The position numbers and the translations under genes were made by a program. A stretch of DNA of 57,971 nt from Thiothrix nivea (lineage in GTDB: Bacteria; Pseudomonadota; Gammaproteobacteria; Thiotrichales; Thiotrichaceae): assembly GCA_002746895.1 (NCBI GenBank), contig PDRT01000048.1, positions 1-57,971 on the forward strand, read 5' to 3'. Under the pieces are notes generated by a model. That model was not told the DNA's origin. It ran no database searches and saw only the letters and a program-made list of their open reading frames with translations. Below, piece after piece: positions 7,246 to 19,863 of the stretch (position 1 is its first letter; each line of letters begins with the position of its first letter).

Positions 7246-8559
7246 CTATGTGACTTGATAGGCTGGGTCCAGCACCAGAAACCTGACAAAACGCGGCTTC
7301 CCCTGTGAGGTTGGGGCTGACTTGACTGGTTTGACCGCCAATAACCAGTGCTGCAACTCATCATCCGGCACATTTGGCAGTTTCAGCGCCACACCACTTT
7401 TGTAACGCACCGCATTCAGATTACCCCGGGTCAGATTGGTCAGCAAACCAATCCGCCGCATCAGCGACTGCGTACTGATCCAGTCCTGACCACCCGCCCA
7501 GCCTTTCACTGTCGGCGGATCAAAAATATCCTGCCCCAGGTTACTCAGGGTATGTGCCAGATTATTGCGCGGCAGGTTGTAAGGCAGGCTGCGTAATGTC
7601 CCCACCGCCAGCTCCACCGGTGATTTAATCAGGTTGCCACGATTGCGTTGATCCCAGAATTGCGGACTTTTCAGAATCGTGTTCATCAATACTGCAATAT
7701 TGTAATTTGAGGAACGAAATACGTTCGCCCATTGTTTCACCACCGCCGGGTGAGGCCGGGAACTATTGATAAATTCATTCCAGAGTTTTTCCACCACATT
7801 TTCCGCTGTGCGCGGATGCCTGAGCAATATATTGATAATATTATCGCCGGTGAAACGGCCTTTTTGCCCCAGAAAGTGCTTAACACCGGTATCATGTTTG
7901 GAGCGGTCGAATACAAACTTGCCGCTTTGCTCATGAATACTCCAGCCGGTAAAGGCTCTGGCCGCTTCCTTGACATCGCGCTCGGTGTAATAGCGTCTGC
8001 CCAAAGTGAACAGTTCCAGCAATTCGCGGGCAAAATTCTCATTCACGGCATCTTTGGTATTTTCATAACCATCCAGATACACCAGCATCGCCGGATCCTT
8101 GGCAATGTCGTGCAGCAACAGACTGAAATTGCCCAGTGCATGTTTTCGCAGTAGGCGGTTCTGGTTCACCAGCAGGGAAGGTGTTTTGGTTTTCTGAATC
8201 GAAGACGGAAAGTAGTTATGCCAGAACAGCGTCATGCGCTCCAGAAACGGACTTTTGGTATGCAGCATGTGCTGCAACCACCAGTTCTGTAAACCGGCAC
8301 CTTCGGCTTTGGCAATACGCATTACCATGCGCCGCCGTCGCATATTGTTATGCAATACACGCATTTTCCGCCAACTGGAAAAACGTGGAATCGCCGGAAG
8401 CGCATTGTCCCGCCGACTCACCAAAAATTCGACTGCCTTTGCCCTTGGCATCATCTCATAACGCTTCACCTCTTCCCATTCCGCACCAAAACCGGTACGG
8501 CTCAGCAGGTGGCGAGCGTCAGTAAAACCCAATTTCGACATATTATATCCGACTAACAC
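7246..8559 (-). CDS. DUF1800 domain-containing protein
   Basis: 437 aa: ARHLLSRTGFGA, WWLQHMLHTKSPFLERMTLFWHNYF, ENFARELLELFTLG; partner of the adjacent DUF1501 gene. Confidence 0.92.
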   Translation of the reverse strand: MLVGYNMSKLGFTDARHLLSRTGFGAEWEEVKRYEMMPRAKAVEFLVSRRDNALPAIPRFSSWRKMRVLHNNMRRRRMVMRIAKAEGAGLQNWWLQHMLHTKSPFLERMTLFWHNYFPSSIQKTKTPSLLVNQNRLLRKHALGNFSLLLHDIAKDPAMLVYLDGYENTKDAVNENFARELLELFTLGRRYYTERDVKEAARAFTGWSIHEQSGKFVFDRSKHDTGVKHFLGQKGRFTGDNIINILLRHPRTAENVVEKLWNEFINSSRPHPAVVKQWANVFRSSNYNIAVLMNTILKSPQFWDQRNRGNLIKSPVELAVGTLRSLPYNLPRNNLAHTLSNLGQDIFDPPTVKGWAGGQDWISTQSLMRRIGLLTNLTRGNLNAVRYKSGVALKLPNVPDDELQHWLLAVKPVKSAPTSQGKPRFVRFLVLDPAYQVT

Positions 8560-8942
8560 ACTATTTCACCGGCTATCGAAATAACCGGAATGTATCTCAA
8601 TAAGCAACGCCCACTGATGCTCCCCAAGCAGGCAGCAGGTCAACCGTAAAAAGATACTGAACCCCAAAAATACACAATTTTAATATTTTTAAATGCGAAA
8701 AACTGCTCAATAAGCGATTAACGCCGCCACAGGTTACCGTTAAATATCGTCGAAGGCTAAACCATAAAACTAATACGGTATAAATAACGACTTTAGACCG
8801 GTCTTCAAACAATTAGCACAGCTGGTAAAGCTGAAAGTATCTATCATCCGGCGTTTATTGCTATCAATGTCAAATATTTCGACGGCCTGCCACCCATGCC
8901 TGCCTGTCATCAGCTAATAATACCCCAAAAGTCATTAAACCA

Positions 8943-9779
8943 ATGTTTACGTTTCACAGAGCAAAATCCACCGTCATTATTTGCTTACTATTATTCCCGG
9001 TCTGGGTGCTGGCACTCACGTCCGGCTTTAACATTAAAGTGGAATCAGAATGGGGCAATGCCGACATCCGGGATGTCAAGGCGGTTGTCGACTCTGTGAC
9101 CCTGGCGATCACACCGTATGTTGGTAACAGAACACTGGACAATATTATCATCCGTAATGATCCCAAAGGCCCGGTTTCCCTGTACCAGCGCGGGAACAAT
9201 AATGAATACATTGTGCTGCTGGATGTGAAAGGTCGTTACTGGTCACAACTGGCTTACCAGTTCTCACATGAGACCTGTCACTTGCTATCCAACTACGATC
9301 TGGTCCCCAATAATGTCACCCGCCAACAGTGGTTTGAGGAGTCACTTTGTGAGGCATTCAGTCTGTTTACCCTGAAAAAAATGGCTGAACAATGGCGGAA
9401 TCACCCACCTTACCCCGGCTGGAAATCTTATGCTCCCAAGTTGCAGCGTTACGTTGATAATATAATGCGCGAGGAACACCGCAGCCTCATTCAGCATCCT
9501 GCAAGCTGGTACCAACGCCACCGTGACACGCTTGAGGCCGATCCCTACGCCGATAATCGCAGGCTGAATGAAAAACTGGCCAGTCACTTACTCCAACTGT
9601 TCGAAAAAAACCCGGAGAGCTGGGCCGCTATCAATTACCTGAACCTTGGTGAGGAAAATACTCCGCCTGATTTGAACCAGTACCTGTCAGATTGGTATAA
9701 AAATACGCCTGCTGCCTATCAGAAGGTCGTTGCAGAAATACAACAACTGTTAAGTAAGGATGAAACTCAGGCCGAATAA
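8943..9779 (+). CDS. Secreted protein with HExxH motif, putative zinc metalloprotease
   Basis: 278 aa, N-terminal hydrophobic signal; QFSHETCHLL (HExxH) followed by WFEESLCEAFSLF as a possible third ligand. Confidence 0.6.
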   Translation: MFTFHRAKSTVIICLLLFPVWVLALTSGFNIKVESEWGNADIRDVKAVVDSVTLAITPYVGNRTLDNIIIRNDPKGPVSLYQRGNNNEYIVLLDVKGRYWSQLAYQFSHETCHLLSNYDLVPNNVTRQQWFEESLCEAFSLFTLKKMAEQWRNHPPYPGWKSYAPKLQRYVDNIMREEHRSLIQHPASWYQRHRDTLEADPYADNRRLNEKLASHLLQLFEKNPESWAAINYLNLGEENTPPDLNQYLSDWYKNTPAAYQKVVAEIQQLLSKDETQAE

Positions 9780-13830: not shown

Positions 13831-14430
13831 TTACCCCTGTAACTGAGCCGGTACCATCACGACTGATACCTTGTCATAGCTCAGACCTTCGATACTTTTT
13901 TCTACGATCAGCTTAATCTCCGATTTCATGCTTTCCAGATCATAAGCCGGATGGTACTTAATAAAAACAGAGGCTGAAGAAGGTTGCGCCTCACGTTGTG
14001 CCGGATTGTTTTCCGGCAGTACCACATGCACCCGTGCCACCAGTACACCATCAATTTGCATCAGGGTTTCCTGTACACTTTGGGATAAGGCGTAGATAAA
14101 GCGCACCCGTTCTTCCAGCGGTGAGGAAATCAACCCATCCTTCTGGAAGATTTGCGCCATATTGGTTATTTTTTCACGCGGATAACCATGCTCCTTGAGC
14201 AGACGAAGTGCTTGCGGGATTTTTGATTCGTCAATATTTAAGGCATAGGTGCCTTCTTTAGTATTGGGGATCTTTTCGGCATCAATACTATTATCCAGCA
14301 TGATGGCCAGCATGCTATTCGCATCGCTTTCATCAAGCCCGCTGTATAACTCTGTCTTACATCCCCCGAGCAATAAACCGAGACTTAACAATGCTGTGTA
14401 AAGTATTTTGTTATTTATTGTTCTCATCAT
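13831..14430 (-). CDS. sctJ: Type III secretion inner-membrane ring lipoprotein SctJ/YscJ-like, lacking C-terminal TM
   Basis: Lipobox LLGGCKTELYSGLDESDANSMLAIM; EGTYALNIDESKIPQALRLLKEHGYP; KDGLISSPLEERVRFIYALSQSVQETLMQIDGVLVARVHVVLPE; ends SIEGLSYDKVSVVMVPAQLQG. Confidence 0.92.
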   Translation of the reverse strand: MMRTINNKILYTALLSLGLLLGGCKTELYSGLDESDANSMLAIMLDNSIDAEKIPNTKEGTYALNIDESKIPQALRLLKEHGYPREKITNMAQIFQKDGLISSPLEERVRFIYALSQSVQETLMQIDGVLVARVHVVLPENNPAQREAQPSSASVFIKYHPAYDLESMKSEIKLIVEKSIEGLSYDKVSVVMVPAQLQG

Positions 14431-14450: not shown

Positions 14451-15014
14451 TCAGCCGCTAGCCCGGAATAGAGTACTGAATGTGGTAGACACTTTTTGAG
14501 CGGCTGAAGCGGCCAACTCCACGCCTGAAGACCAGATCTGAAAACGCATCATCCACTTGCTCAAATCACTGTGGTATTCCAGTGCAGACTGTTGTGCAGC
14601 CTCAATGCCATCCACGTGTGCCTGTAATGAACTGTTCCCCTCATCCGTACTGACTGCCGGATAGGTCATCATTTCAGCAGAAGGCTCATCCCTCCGCTTG
14701 CTTGCATAATTCGAGAAGTCGGGGCGACTACCGGATTGATCCAGCAAGGAATGATAATTCCCATCCACTCTTGCTGCCTGATCAAGCATTTTATCGACCA
14801 GAGTTACAGTATCATTTTGTCCGGGTTCAACAAATTGCAAGACAGAGTGCTCCAGCGGCTGTGGCTGGATTGAGGTGTCATCAAGTTTGCCTCCGGTAAT
14901 CAAGTCCTGAAAACGTTCACTGTCTTTTGCATGAGATGCAGGCAATGACTGAGGACTTTGTTGCAGCGTAGACGCTGATAGTTGCCCTGCGGCTAATATA
15001 CCTGTTTCCACCAT
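14451..15014 (-). CDS. sctI: Type III secretion inner-rod protein SctI-like
   Basis: 187 aa; position between G- and J-like genes; C-terminal SDLSKWMMRFQIWSSGVELAASAAQKVSTTFSTLFRASG resembles SctI C-termini. Confidence 0.65.
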   Translation of the reverse strand: MVETGILAAGQLSASTLQQSPQSLPASHAKDSERFQDLITGGKLDDTSIQPQPLEHSVLQFVEPGQNDTVTLVDKMLDQAARVDGNYHSLLDQSGSRPDFSNYASKRRDEPSAEMMTYPAVSTDEGNSSLQAHVDGIEAAQQSALEYHSDLSKWMMRFQIWSSGVELAASAAQKVSTTFSTLFRASG

Positions 15015-15031: not shown

Positions 15032-15397
15032 TCAGTTTGCCAGATAAACATTGGCAATACTCTGTTCGTCTTCATTGCCATTTGCAGCCACTTCCTCGAA
15101 CAGTGTATGTGCCCCGTCCTGATCCCCCTTTAAATTCAGAGCAATACCTAAAAAGCATTTTGCACTCATGTGGTCAGGTTCATTAACCAGCACATCATCA
15201 CGCAAAATGGATATCGCATTATCAATATCGCCCGCATAAATCTTGGTGATTGCCACTCCCATCTTAATCGGGGTTTGCTCATCACCTACGGCATCAACAC
15301 CATCCATAATAGTCTGAGCATTTTGACTATCTCCCCGGAAGCAAGCCATATAACCGATTTCAGATAATAATTGCAGTAATTCAGTTGTAATTTTCAT
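15032..15397 (-). CDS. TPR-type T3SS chaperone, SctG/YscG-like
   Basis: 121 aa TPR protein (SEIGYMACFRGDSQNAQTIMDGV, IYAGDIDNAISILRDDVLVNEPDHMSAKCFLGIALNLKGD) in the yscG position. Confidence 0.65.
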   Translation of the reverse strand: MKITTELLQLLSEIGYMACFRGDSQNAQTIMDGVDAVGDEQTPIKMGVAITKIYAGDIDNAISILRDDVLVNEPDHMSAKCFLGIALNLKGDQDGAHTLFEEVAANGNEDEQSIANVYLAN

Positions 15398-15423: not shown

Positions 15424-15447
15424 CCCTTCCCCCCGTAGAGGGAAGGG
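15424..15447 (-). promoter_or_regulatory. Strong intercistronic hairpin between the needle-candidate gene and the sctG-like gene
   Basis: CCCTTCCC-8 nt-GGGAAGGG perfect inverted repeat; no long U tract on the minus-strand transcript. Confidence 0.6.
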
Positions 15448-15481
15448 CATAGACAAAAATATCTATGTCTGATTGTTATTT

Positions 15482-15718
15482 TTAACCTTGTCTCAATGAT
15501 TGGCTAATCGTACGTGTCAAGGTACGTAATGCCTGAGCCATAGCAGACTCATTTTCAATTTCAGCTGACTCAGCCTGAAATTTGGTTTGCAAGTCAGTTA
15601 CCTGCTGTTGGAAAGCCAGCTGCTCGTTTTGAGTTGCTTCGATTTGAGCAAGTGCTTCACTAAACGATGCGGATAAAGTATTTCCACCCGCTCCGCCAGT
15701 ATTTGCTGCTGCTGCCAT
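15482..15718 (-). CDS. Small helical protein, candidate T3SS needle (SctF) equivalent
   Basis: 78 aa, AGGAGA Shine-Dalgarno; lies between YscE-like and YscG-like chaperone genes, i.e. the yscF position; sequence itself is divergent. Confidence 0.5.
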   Translation of the reverse strand: MAAAANTGGAGGNTLSASFSEALAQIEATQNEQLAFQQQVTDLQTKFQAESAEIENESAMAQALRTLTRTISQSLRQG

Positions 15719-15841
15719 ATTTTATCTCCTAATTATAGATTAAATTCAGAAGTCCCCGATGACACTCACCAAACGCAGGGAAGTTCTGTTTTTAAAGTGT
15801 GGCATTGCGCTCCATGCCAAATACGAACAGTTGAACTACTT

Positions 15842-16051
15842 TTACTTTTGTGTCCAAACCTGTTCTACCACCTCTGTACTCACCTCGAGAGCCTTCAAAA
15901 AACGATTGAGTTTATCGTATTGTTCCGGCTCTACCCCCTGATTAAGCTCAAACCGCACCTCGGAAGCTGCCTGATTGATCTTATCAAGGATGTCATTCTT
16001 AAAAATTCCTGAAACATCGTTTTTTAGGTTTTGCTCTAGTTGTAATACCAT
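15842..16051 (-). CDS. T3SS co-chaperone, YscE/SctE-like
   Basis: 69 aa; RFELNQGVEPEQYDKLNRFLKALEVSTEVVEQVWTQK follows the YscE pattern; immediately downstream of the sctD-like gene. Confidence 0.6.
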   Translation of the reverse strand: MVLQLEQNLKNDVSGIFKNDILDKINQAASEVRFELNQGVEPEQYDKLNRFLKALEVSTEVVEQVWTQK

Positions 16052-16054
16052 TTT

Positions 16055-17419
16055 TTATTTTTCCTCTGCTCCATAATAGATAGGTATTTCTGCGCCATTG
16101 TTTGACAACAATACATGATCCGGAGCAATTTTCTTTATAAAATAATTGTTTCCGAGACTCGAACCTTCCATATACCTGTTTCCTTCCTTGGAAACCAGAA
16201 ATGGTGTCTCACCGACACTGACACTCCGGATAACCAGTTTAATACGCTCCCGCGCATCATATAAATTCTCTACTACCGCCGGGCCGTCACCGTAGAGTGT
16301 CAAAAACTCCTGGTACAAGTCGCTCCAGCGCTCCAGCTCACTCTGTGTTAGCTCGCCGTCAACTTTAATCCGGTTTTCCTGAATCGTAACTCTAATGCGG
16401 CTGGAAAGGCCTTTTTTCTCGATAAACTGCTCCAAAGCCTGCTTGCGCCTGGGCAAGGTTTGCATCGCATCATCTTCAATCGCCTGAATACCGCTGACAT
16501 CCTCCATAATATTGGCTTTAATTTGCTGCCAGTCATTACCGCTGGTCACATAACCGGATGCCGCCAGTTTGCCCGCACCCAGCCCCTTGAAGCGAATTTC
16601 CGTCTGCCCCAGAGCCTGTGCTACCTGTTGTGCACTGGTCACCAGCTCCTCTCCGGCCCAGATTCGGTAATTAACCCGGTCACCGGCACGGCTCATCTGC
16701 GTCATAATGCGGCGCTTTTCCTCCAGTGTATCAACATAGCCACTCACCAGTGCACCATCGGCTTTTTTCTCCACACTCAGATTATCGCTATTCAACGCGG
16801 CGACAATGGCTTCAGCACGTTTTTCCGGCGACTCGGCAAACCCTATGTTTTCGGCCAGCCCCAGCAAATCCGGCAGCAGATAAAGTACATTCGCCAGCAG
16901 CAATACGCCCAGTCCCAAACCGAGATATAGTTTCCCACCACTGCTTTTTTGCTGGCGGAAAGCACGCTTGGCCACCAGTCCAGAAGCCAGCGGAATTTCT
17001 GCCTGATCTGTAGTGGATTGCCGGAAAACGGAGTCGGCCTTTGCAGCGGACGCTGCATTACGTTTGCCTGAACCGGAGTCAACCGCCTGTGCAGCCTCTT
17101 TTTGCCTGCCCTCACGGACATCGGCAATAAAGAAGTCGACATTACCCAGCGTCACTACCTGAAACGGCTTCAGCAGAAACTCTTCTGTCTCTACCGGCTG
17201 CTGGTCAACACTCACCGGCTGATTCAGCACCTTCATGACAATACTGTTTTCCGAGACGGTCAGTTGCAGGTGAGCTTCGGCGATACTTTCGTCATACAGA
17301 ATGATGTCACTCGACATCGACCGCCCCAACACGACATCACCGACTTTCAGGCGGACAATAGCTCCGGCGTTACTGCCGCTGAGAACCTTCAGCAGAAAAG
17401 GGGTTTGTTGAGTTATCAT
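16055..17419 (-). CDS. sctD: Type III secretion inner-membrane ring protein SctD/YscD-like
   Basis: 454 aa: N-terminal FHA-like domain (FLLKVLSGSNAGAIVRLKVGDVVLGRSMSSDIIL), single TM (LYLGLGLGVLLLANVLYLLPDLLGL), periplasmic ring-building/BON-like repeats. Confidence 0.85.
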   Translation of the reverse strand: MITQQTPFLLKVLSGSNAGAIVRLKVGDVVLGRSMSSDIILYDESIAEAHLQLTVSENSIVMKVLNQPVSVDQQPVETEEFLLKPFQVVTLGNVDFFIADVREGRQKEAAQAVDSGSGKRNAASAAKADSVFRQSTTDQAEIPLASGLVAKRAFRQQKSSGGKLYLGLGLGVLLLANVLYLLPDLLGLAENIGFAESPEKRAEAIVAALNSDNLSVEKKADGALVSGYVDTLEEKRRIMTQMSRAGDRVNYRIWAGEELVTSAQQVAQALGQTEIRFKGLGAGKLAASGYVTSGNDWQQIKANIMEDVSGIQAIEDDAMQTLPRRKQALEQFIEKKGLSSRIRVTIQENRIKVDGELTQSELERWSDLYQEFLTLYGDGPAVVENLYDARERIKLVIRSVSVGETPFLVSKEGNRYMEGSSLGNNYFIKKIAPDHVLLSNNGAEIPIYYGAEEK

Positions 17420-18075
17420 CTTTCAATCACATCAACTACATCGAATCCCGGGAAGCGATCATTAGCCGAGACATCCTTATCGGCTCCGCGTGAGCTTAAC
17501 GGGCGCTCATTGCTGAAATTAACTCTGCCGTTCGCATCAACCCATTTATAAATCTGGGCACGTTTTTTGGGCTGCTTATCCATCAGTTTCGCCATGCTGA
17601 TCACTGAATTTACAAACCGCTCCGGGCCAGTAAAGTAGATCACATTATCCAGCTCTGATACTTCCCAGTGATACTGATCATCCAGTACTTGCAAGCGCCT
17701 GAGTGCCTCTGAAAACTCTTGGGGTGACATATTCTTCATGCTTACCGAGCCACGCCGTGCCTCATCTTCCTTGTAGACAAAAATGGCCTCGCCATCGTAA
17801 TACCAGATCAGGCCATAAGTCTTTGCCAGATCTTCAAAAATCTCCCTGGACGGCTTATTTTTATAGTGCATGCTGACAATATCGGCGACCTTCTCACTGA
17901 TAGTGATGGGCGTACCCTGATTAGCTGCCAGGGTTTTCAGCATTTCAGCCAGCGGTTCTTCATCGGAAAAATGGGAATACGGCTTATCGTTCCACGGTAA
18001 TGGTGCAGCGTTTATTATCTGGCAGCAACACAGCACCATGCCAAACAACAGAGTTCGTCGCAACAGCATCACCAA
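17416..18075 (-). CDS. SctC/YscC secretin N0-N1 domains only, fused to a DUF4124-like tail
   Basis: 219 aa, signal peptide; ISEKVADIVSMHYKNKPSREIFEDLAKTYGLIWYYDGEAIFVYKEDEA...YHWEVSELDNVIYFTGPERFVNSVISMAKLMDKQ is SctC-like; then IYKWVDANGRVNFSNERP (DUF4124-like). No secretin barrel. ATGA overlap with the sctD-like gene. Confidence 0.8.
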   Translation of the reverse strand: MVMLLRRTLLFGMVLCCCQIINAAPLPWNDKPYSHFSDEEPLAEMLKTLAANQGTPITISEKVADIVSMHYKNKPSREIFEDLAKTYGLIWYYDGEAIFVYKEDEARRGSVSMKNMSPQEFSEALRRLQVLDDQYHWEVSELDNVIYFTGPERFVNSVISMAKLMDKQPKKRAQIYKWVDANGRVNFSNERPLSSRGADKDVSANDRFPGFDVVDVIER

Positions 18076-18193
18076 CCTCGCTATAAATTAATTTCATTTT
18101 CACCATAATCGCAAATTATTATAAGAAAAGTCGACAGATAACAGGACAAGCGCAACTAAAAAGCAGAATAGCCGCAGAGAGTAATTTTCAGGC

Positions 18194-18253: not shown

Positions 18254-18667
18254 ATGATGCGTATTGGAGAACTGGCGAAGCACAGTCGTCTACCCGTCGA
18301 CACACTGCGTTTTTATGAAAAGGAAGGCTTAATTGCCGAACCACCCCGCAATCCGGCTGGATACCGCGACTATCCGGCGACCACCCTGCAATATCTGGAT
18401 TTCATCCGCAGTGCAAAAGCGGTTGGTTTTTCACTGCAGGAGTGCCGTAATCTGCTGGCCATTTTTGTCCGGCGTGATGCCCACACCTGTGCAGAAGTTA
18501 AGCAGCTCTCTGAAGATAAATTACAACAGCTGGAAGATAAAATGCAGGCATTGCAACGCATGCATCAAACCTTGCGGGCTATATCTGATGCCTGCTGTGG
18601 CGGTGAAGAATCAGCGGCACACTGCTCTATTCTGAACGCCTTACAACAAAAGGAACTGAACCCATGA
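18254..18667 (+). CDS. MerR-family metal-responsive regulator (ZntR/CadR-like)
   Basis: MRIGELAKHSRLPVDTLRFYEKEGLI; C-terminal DACCGGEESAAHCSILNAL metal-binding loop as in ZntR-type proteins. Confidence 0.88.
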   Translation: MMRIGELAKHSRLPVDTLRFYEKEGLIAEPPRNPAGYRDYPATTLQYLDFIRSAKAVGFSLQECRNLLAIFVRRDAHTCAEVKQLSEDKLQQLEDKMQALQRMHQTLRAISDACCGGEESAAHCSILNALQQKELNP

Positions 18668-19863
18668 CAGATTTTTTACACAACTTGCTGGAATTATCGC
18701 TGGAAGCGGCTCCGTGGCTGGTGCTGGGTTTTGCCTTGGGCGGCCTGATGAAAGCACTGATTCCAACCACCTTTCTACAGCGTCATCTCAGTGGCAATGA
18801 TATCGCCTCTATCAGCAAGGCAGCGGTGTTAGGTGCCCCCCTGCCATTGTGTTCCTGTGGTGTTATTCCTGCGGCTATAGGGTTACGGGAAGCCGGAGCA
18901 TCGAAACCGGCTACAGCCTCTTTTCTGGTTGCCACTCCGGAAACCGGGGTTGATTCAATCTCGATCACCTATGCGTTGATCGGGCCGGTGATGGCGGTTG
19001 TACGCCCGATTGCTGCACTGGCCTCTGCCCTGACTGCCGGTATTTTTGTGGCTTTGCTGGGTGAGAAGGAAACACGGCGGGTAACTACATCGACACCCGC
19101 GACTCCCCCTGAACAGCCTGCGGCAAACGCTTGCTGTTCAACATCGACATCTGTGGCGACACAAAACAGCTGTTGCAGCAGTGCTAAAACAATACCGAAA
19201 TCCGCACACGGCTGTTGTGACAATACCGAAACCACCCCGCAACCAAGCTCAGGTTGCTGTGACACACGCTCGACAACCACCAGCACCTTACCCGGACAGG
19301 CATGGTCAGGCATCCGCTATGCGTTCACCCGTCTGCTGGATGATATTGTGTTCTGGCTGGCCATCGGAATAGTATTTGCGGCACTGACCCGCACGTTTCT
19401 GCCTGCAGATTTTTTGCAACACTGGGGGCAAGGAGTCACCGCCATGCTGGTGATGATGCTGGTAGGCGTTCCAATGTATATTTGTGCTACCACTTCTACA
19501 CCGATGGCAGCGGGGCTCATGATGGCAGGTATGTCACCGGGTGTGGCACTGGTATTTTTGCTGACCGGCCCGGCGACTAATATTTCCACTTTAGGAGTGA
19601 TCGGGCGTGAACTCGGCCAGCGCAATATGTGGCTTTACCTGCTAGCAGTCGGTACCACTGCACTGATCAGCGGCCTGTTACTGGATACGGCTGTCAGTTA
19701 CTGGCAGATCGACATTGTCACCCAATTGCAGGCCGGGCATAACCATTTTCCATTGCTGATCAACTGGGCCAGTTTGTTGCTGCTGATGGGGTTGGCGCTG
19801 CGCAAATTACCGCACAAGCTGAGAAATCGCCACCATACTCACTCCGGCACTCAGCAGGTATAA
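18664..19863 (+). CDS. SO_0444-type Cu/Zn efflux permease (DUF318-like) with Cys-rich loop
   Basis: PLPLCSCGVIPAAIGLREAGASKPATASFLVATPETGVDSISITYALIGP; VGVPMYICATTSTPMAAGLMMAGMSPGVALVFLLTGPATN; four CC motifs in the central loop. Confidence 0.88.
   Translation: MTDFLHNLLELSLEAAPWLVLGFALGGLMKALIPTTFLQRHLSGNDIASISKAAVLGAPLPLCSCGVIPAAIGLREAGASKPATASFLVATPETGVDSISITYALIGPVMAVVRPIAALASALTAGIFVALLGEKETRRVTTSTPATPPEQPAANACCSTSTSVATQNSCCSSAKTIPKSAHGCCDNTETTPQPSSGCCDTRSTTTSTLPGQAWSGIRYAFTRLLDDIVFWLAIGIVFAALTRTFLPADFLQHWGQGVTAMLVMMLVGVPMYICATTSTPMAAGLMMAGMSPGVALVFLLTGPATNISTLGVIGRELGQRNMWLYLLAVGTTALISGLLLDTAVSYWQIDIVTQLQAGHNHFPLLINWASLLLLMGLALRKLPHKLRNRHHTHSGTQQV

What the first reader, a model, noticed from the sequence alone, without database searches (positions are those of the whole stretch)
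17416..18075. Secretin reduced to N0-N1 periplasmic domains and fused to a DUF4124-like tail
Seen: the 219-aa protein matches SctC/YscC N-terminal domains (EDLAKTYGLIWYYDGEAIFVYKEDEA), then switches to IYKWVDANGRVNFSNERP, a DUF4124 hallmark, and stops. The N3 and outer-membrane barrel domains are absent. The stop overlaps the sctD start (ATGA), so the truncation sits at an intact coupled junction. Inference: it could act as a soluble or cell-wall-facing cap on the SctD ring instead of an outer-membrane channel.
Basis: partly seen in the sequence, partly recalled or inferred. Interest (0 to 1): 0.8.

Follow-up and report, generated by a model that had tools for sequence, protein, structure and literature searches.

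The report
Injection machine without its outer-membrane channel
Filamentous sulfur bacteria of the Thiothrix group carry a type III secretion machine whose outer-membrane ring protein keeps only its periplasmic base and a short new tail, and the rest of the host-injection kit (channel, recognisable needle, gatekeeper, translocator) is missing too, so the machine probably no longer injects host cells and may end inside the cell envelope.

Summary
Confirmed, and family-wide. The gene (minus strand; ATG start at 18069) has a signal peptide, SctC-type N0 and N1 domains, a DUF4124-like tail, and stops. All 24 orthologous loci in Thiothrix, Thiolinea, Thiofilum, Leucothrix, Cocleimonas and related MAGs are equally short. 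Twelve of 14 outgroup loci encode full secretins, including the nearest, an Endozoicomonadaceae MAG. The gene is under strong purifying selection, tail included. The tail hits DUF4124 in 23 of 25 members and does not resemble the start of N3.

No dedicated T3SS barrel turned up in 23 genomes, one of them a single closed contig. They also lack the gatekeeper (0/23), the SseC/YopB-type translocator (0/23 real) and a needle subunit over the Pfam cut-off (0/20). Each model rang in 3/3 outgroup genomes. The export core is intact in relatives. A Tgl-type transglutaminase gene lies beside sctC in seven genomes and is a candidate substrate.

Closest precedents are rhizobial RhcC1/NolW, which keeps a partner barrel (RhcC2) not found here, and the secretin-less Myxococcales T3SS. 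I read this as a new variant of T3SS, most likely ending in the periplasm. Function and destination are inferred. An unlinked borrowed secretin is the main rival. I found no paper on it.

The parts
17416..18069 (-). sctC-short: signal peptide + N0 + N1 + DUF4124-like tail, 217 aa from ATG (219 aa from the TTG at 18075)
18076..18079 (-). GAGG ribosome-binding site upstream of the ATG
   Evidence: sequence
17767..17979 (-). N0 domain (residues 33-103 in TTG numbering)
   Evidence: Pfam T3S_SPI-1_N0; AF2/Foldseek
17572..17757 (-). N1 domain (residues 107-168)
   Evidence: Pfam Secretin_N, weak; AF2/Foldseek to InvG/MxiD N0-N1
17500..17559 (-). DUF4124-like motif IYKWVDANGRVNFSNERP (residues 173-192); W178, G183 and P192 invariant in 25 members
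   Evidence: not an N3 remnant
16055..17419 (-). sctD, inner-membrane ring (FHA, three BON domains, Y4YQ_C C-terminal domain)
   Evidence: TIGR02500 over cut-off
15842..16051 (-). sctE, needle co-chaperone family
   Evidence: PF08988 over cut-off
15482..15718 (-). 78-aa fast-evolving protein in the sctF position; no SctF model matches it
15032..15397 (-). sctG-like TPR chaperone (CdsG/YscG type)
   Evidence: NF052304 E 4e-10, under cut-off
14451..15014 (-). 187-aa protein in the sctI (inner rod) position
   Evidence: position and conserved synteny; no family hit
13831..14430 (-). sctJ lipoprotein, 199 aa
   Evidence: TIGR02544 over cut-off

Best explanation
This is a reduced but maintained SctC of a Thiotrichaceae-specific type III secretion system. 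Shown: the protein is N0+N1 plus a conserved DUF4124-like tail, it is shared by all sampled systems of the family, it is under purifying selection, and no dedicated secretin barrel, gatekeeper, SseC-type translocator or recognisable SctF needle was found. The SctR-V/N/O/Q/K/L export core and SctD/E/G/J are present in relatives. Inferred: N0-N1 assembles as a ring on the periplasmic face of SctD, as InvG/MxiD N0-N1 do, and acts as a periplasmic collar or cap, with the tail docking to the wall or another envelope partner. The machine then ends in the periplasm or cell wall and exports its substrates there; the Tgl-type transglutaminase encoded beside sctC in relatives is a candidate. It no longer injects eukaryotic cells.
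For: Orthologues in 22 of 57 related genomes, including own; 24 loci found by an independent scan, all short with the same tail, while 12 of 14 outgroup loci encode full secretins. DUF4124 in 23 of 25 members. Purifying selection: dN 0.006 vs dS 0.38 for one close pair, with no nonsynonymous change in the tail. No TIGR02516 match over cut-off in 23 genomes; the closed genome G033 has three full-length secretins, two GspD-family and one PilQ by gene context. Gatekeeper 0/23 vs 3/3 controls; translocator 0/23 real vs 3/3; needle over cut-off 0/20 vs 3/3. Full export core beside the operon in relatives. N0-N1 fold matches InvG/MxiD. Tgl-type gene in 12 of 23 T3SS-positive vs 0 of 9 T3SS-negative relatives (Fisher p 0.012), beside sctC in seven.
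Against: No localisation, complex model or secretion assay. PilQ and GspD exist in these cells and could be borrowed. Absences rest on profile searches, and needle or translocator proteins evolve fast; the 78-aa protein may be a divergent needle. The Fisher test ignores relatedness. The window's own genome (68% complete) shows no SctV or SctN, so activity of this particular copy cannot be judged. G010 has SctV and SctN but no sctC was found. The Tgl-type protein lacks the second catalytic Glu187 of the Bacillus enzyme, though the Cys is kept.
Confidence: 0.55

Rival explanations
1. RhcC1-like linker: SctC-short docks an unlinked outer-membrane secretin (PilQ, GspD or the second GspD-like protein) onto SctD, so the channel exists but is borrowed.
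For: Rhizobial RhcC1/NolW is the same truncation, and Abby and Rocha (PMC3459982) proposed it links SctD to the Tad-type barrel RhcC2. PilQ and GspD secretins are common in these genomes. DUF4124 occurs in TfpC, a type IV pilus maintenance factor (PMC7593972).
Against: In the rhizobial and Paracoccus systems the split secretin has, or is reported to have, its own RhcC2-type gene; none was found in the closed genome G033. The second GspD-like secretin occurs in T3SS-negative G002 and G012 and is missing from several T3SS-positive genera. Short barrels in G009 (482 aa) and G007 (560 aa) are one-genome cases. The companion loss of gatekeeper and translocator is unexplained.
Confidence: 0.25
2. 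The outer membrane is crossed by a non-secretin route, for example a different pore or a filament that pushes through, with the tail recruiting it.
For: The conserved tail suggests a partner, and flagella cross with non-secretin rings. The operon holds extra conserved NfeD-like and STAS proteins.
Against: No outer-membrane protein is conserved in the loci read; NfeD and STAS are not pores.
Confidence: 0.12
3. A decaying T3SS, with the short SctC as a relic.
For: Several canonical parts are missing, and the window's genome shows no SctV or SctN.
Against: The same architecture persists across several genera; dN/dS is far below 1 and the tail itself is conserved; the export core is intact in relatives.
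Confidence: 0.05
4. Assembly or annotation artefact.
For: None found.
Against: 24 independent contigs, including isolates and a complete chromosome.
Confidence: 0.01

Closest known systems
RhcC1/NolW of rhizobial T3SS (and a similar split in Paracoccus kondratievae pKON1)
   Same: A short SctC of N0-N1 plus a short tail, encoded in the T3SS locus; the SctD-binding part is kept.
   Different: Rhizobia carry a separate Tad-type barrel RhcC2, and Paracoccus a pilus-secretin-like gene in the same locus. None was found here. NolW tails do not match DUF4124, and the rhizobial loci keep a translocator gene (NopX/NolX).
Myxococcales secretin-less NF-T3SS
   Same: Lacks secretin, recognised SctF, tip and translocon (PMC3459982).
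   Different: Described as lacking the secretin altogether and branching early; here N0-N1 is kept and the nearest relative has a full secretin, so this is most simply a secondary loss.
Canonical SctC (InvG, MxiD, EscC, YscC)
   Same: N0-N1 sequence and fold; position in an sctC-D-E-F-G-I-J operon.
   Different: No N3 or secretin barrel; DUF4124-like tail instead.
DUF4124 proteins such as TfpC
   Same: The Y[KR]W.D..G...[FY]S...P motif, in a secreted periplasmic protein.
   Different: Only about a third of the model matches, and it sits at the C-terminus of a secretin base.

Membership tests
SctC secretin (TIGR02516) | N0-N1 periplasmic domains | tested here: met
SctC secretin (TIGR02516) | N3 and secretin barrel; score over the curated cut-off | tested here: not met
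   109.9 vs 238.45 bits; profile positions 2-143 of 463 only
Non-flagellar T3SS | SctJ, SctD, export gate SctR-V and ATPase SctN | tested here: met
   met in relatives; in the window only SctD/E/G/J, and SctV/SctN not found in its incomplete genome
Host-injecting T3SS | SseC/YopB translocator, HrpJ-type gatekeeper, SctF needle | tested here: not met
   with positive controls 76, 78, 81
RhcC1/RhcC2 split secretin | Short N0-N1 protein | tested here: met
RhcC1/RhcC2 split secretin | Separate Tad-type barrel gene RhcC2 | tested here: not met
Myxo secretin-less T3SS | No secretin-derived protein at all | tested here: not met
   N0-N1 is retained
DUF4124 (PF13511) | Score over the gathering cut-off | tested here: met
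   31 vs 22 bits, positions 12-30 of 56 only; E <= 0.01 in 23 of 25 members
SctC N3 remnant | Tail profile aligns with the N3 start | tested here: not met
   score 7.6, below the best of 40 column shuffles (12.5)
Tgl transglutaminase (neighbour gene in relatives) | Catalytic Cys116 plus Glu187 or Glu115 | tested here: inconclusive
   Cys conserved, Asp at the 115 position, Trp at the 187 position

The most novel reading that the evidence does not exclude
The secretin-less injectisome works between sister cells of the filament or at the cell wall: a T3SS turned into a septal or wall-building exporter, for instance delivering a cross-linking enzyme across or into the septum, where an outer membrane may not have to be crossed.
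Probability: 0.1. Interest if true: 0.9.

Novelty: new variant of a known kind. Interest (0 to 1): 0.66.

Why it matters
T3SS is taught as an injection device spanning three membranes. Here a whole family of free-living filamentous bacteria keeps the export engine and the periplasmic base of the secretin but no recognisable outer-membrane channel, gatekeeper, translocator or needle. That is a secondary return to the kind of secretin-less state inferred for the T3SS ancestor and still seen in Myxococcales. It offers cultivable organisms (Thiothrix, Thiolinea) in which to ask what such a machine exports and where. It also isolates the SctD-binding role of N0-N1 from channel formation.

Tried and rejected
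N3 remnant: by eye the tail resembles the N3 start of full secretins (YAWAEDHVINY...PGVA), but profile comparison gave no alignment and scored below shuffled tails, and the PGF part is missing from the Leucothrix-type members.

Common origin with RhcC1: NolW tails do not hit DUF4124, and the SctV tree leaves the order among Endozoicomonadaceae, Paracoccus, rhizobia and Thiotrichaceae unresolved, so I make no claim.

Partner barrel: the third secretin does not follow T3SS presence.

PF04888 hit in G027: an RHS-type protein, not a translocator.

N0-N1 plus SctD complex: not possible with single-chain prediction. Tgl-type model: confidence too low to search (pLDDT 51). Septum ultrastructure of Thiothrix: two literature searches gave nothing usable.

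Full report
Observation. The protein is encoded on the minus strand at 17416-18075. The listed TTG start is probably two codons early: ATG at 18069 has a GAGG ribosome-binding site. After a signal peptide come N0 (PF21304, E 9e-10), N1 (PF03958, E 6e-5, under cut-off) and a DUF4124 match (PF13511, E 3e-7, 19 of 56 model positions). TIGR02516 stops at profile position 143 of 463. phmmer finds InvG, EscC and MxiD in the PDB. The AlphaFold2 model (25 sequences, mean pLDDT 81, N0-N1 about 84-94, tail 54-79) superposes on InvG and MxiD N0-N1.

Conservation. The query finds the same short protein in 22 of 57 related genomes (23 hits, of which G045 is only a DUF4124 match). A scan of one genome per GTDB species returned 38 loci: 24 from Thiothrix, Thiolinea, Thiofilum, Leucothrix, Cocleimonas and related MAGs, and 14 outgroups. 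All 24 stop 198-227 codons from the match start with the same tail; 12 of 14 outgroups run on into a full secretin, and the other two frames are interrupted. Nearest by SctV is an Endozoicomonadaceae MAG (56% identity) with a 619-aa SctC that has a barrel, so the short form is most simply a loss. DUF4124 is detected in 23 of 25 members; W178, G183 and P192 are invariant. Between two close relatives dN is 0.006 and dS 0.38, with no nonsynonymous change in the tail. The ATGA overlap with sctD is not conserved.

Is the tail a relic of N3? By eye it could be. Profile alignment of the family with full secretins ends at residue 171, and the tail alone scores below column shuffles against the N3 region. 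DUF4124-like is the better description, as a partial domain. Whether it was acquired or evolved in place is open.

The system. Operon sctC-D-E-[78 aa]-G-[187 aa]-J is conserved. In most relatives a neighbouring operon carries SctQ-R-S-T-U, an NfeD-like protein, a STAS protein, SctV-N-O, with SctK-L nearby. SctV is found in 21 of the 22 short-SctC genomes; the exception is the window's own, 68% complete, assembly. In its closest relatives SctV lies on another contig than sctC, so absence there is not informative.

What is missing. PF00263 finds mostly full-length secretins. In the closed genome G033 these are two GspD-family proteins and a PilQ by its aroB-side context. TIGR02516 gives no hit over cut-off in 23 genomes. 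The gatekeeper model PF07201 rings in 0 of 23 Thiotrichaceae genomes but in 3 of 3 outgroup genomes. The translocator model PF04888 rings once in 23, in an RHS protein, but in 3 of 3 outgroups. The needle model PF09392 rings over cut-off in 0 of 20 but in 3 of 3 outgroups. The 78-aa protein in the needle slot evolves fast and has no family match; it may be a divergent needle. These are absences at profile sensitivity.

A possible substrate. Beside sctC in seven genomes lies a gene for a roughly 400-aa protein with a low-complexity N-terminus and a Tgl domain (PF20085), otherwise known from Bacillus spore coats. It occurs in 12 of 23 T3SS-positive and 0 of 9 T3SS-negative relatives (p 0.012, not corrected for relatedness). 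The catalytic Cys is invariant and the neighbouring acid is Asp; Glu187 of the Bacillus enzyme (PMC6490927) aligns with Trp. Secretion and activity are untested. It was not found in the window's genome.

Mechanism. Shown: architecture, conservation, selection, missing parts, intact core. Established for relatives: N0-N1 of SctC contacts the SctD C-terminus (PMC3459982). Inferred: SctC-short forms a periplasmic collar or cap on SctD, the machine ends in the periplasm, and its substrates act on the wall, sheath or septum. Thiothrix filaments have a mucous sheath, rosettes and gonidia (PMC8570282), which suggests envelope roles but proves none. That septa might allow transfer without crossing an outer membrane is my own speculation.

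Comparison. RhcC1/NolW is the nearest known protein and shows that this truncation can be functional, but it keeps a barrel partner. The Myxococcales T3SS shows that a secretin-less system can persist. The combination here, a retained N0-N1 base with a DUF4124-like tail and no barrel found, was not found in the paper library. That library is partial, so it may be described elsewhere.

Noticed in passing
L055:3825-5114, L120:8470-9777, L125 (two copies); not found in the window's genome: Tgl-type (Bacillus spore-coat family) transglutaminase genes beside sctC in Thiothrix-group genomes, with low-complexity, probably disordered N-termini; candidate T3SS substrates.
   Followed up: partly
L116:5080-5628 and L116:4757-5083: NfeD-like membrane protein and STAS-domain protein embedded in the SctU-SctV operon of relatives; not standard T3SS parts.
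   Followed up: partly
window 18254-19863: A MerR regulator and an ArsP-type permease with a Cys-rich insert lie between the IclR gene and sctC; in close relatives (L112, L113) the IclR gene directly precedes sctC.
   Followed up: partly
L136:2262-4121: Full-length SctC of an Endozoicomonadaceae MAG begins with a LysM-like segment before N0.
   Followed up: no
L184 (Paracoccus kondratievae pKON1) 15427-16038 and 8414-9676: An alphaproteobacterial plasmid T3SS with a short unannotated N0-N1 SctC and a separate pilus-secretin-like gene: apparently another split secretin.
   Followed up: partly
L026 (G011:C35:162317-162520): A broken sctC fragment with two stops, near the two Tgl-type genes of Thiofilum: apparent local duplication.
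   Followed up: no
window 15482-15718 and relatives (alignment A3): The protein in the needle slot diverges far faster (18-42% identity to the window copy) than its flanking chaperones.
   Followed up: partly
L152:644-2092 and L153:523-2205: Two one-genome oddities: a 482-aa secretin and a 560-aa TPR-secretin lipoprotein, neither conserved with the T3SS.
   Followed up: partly
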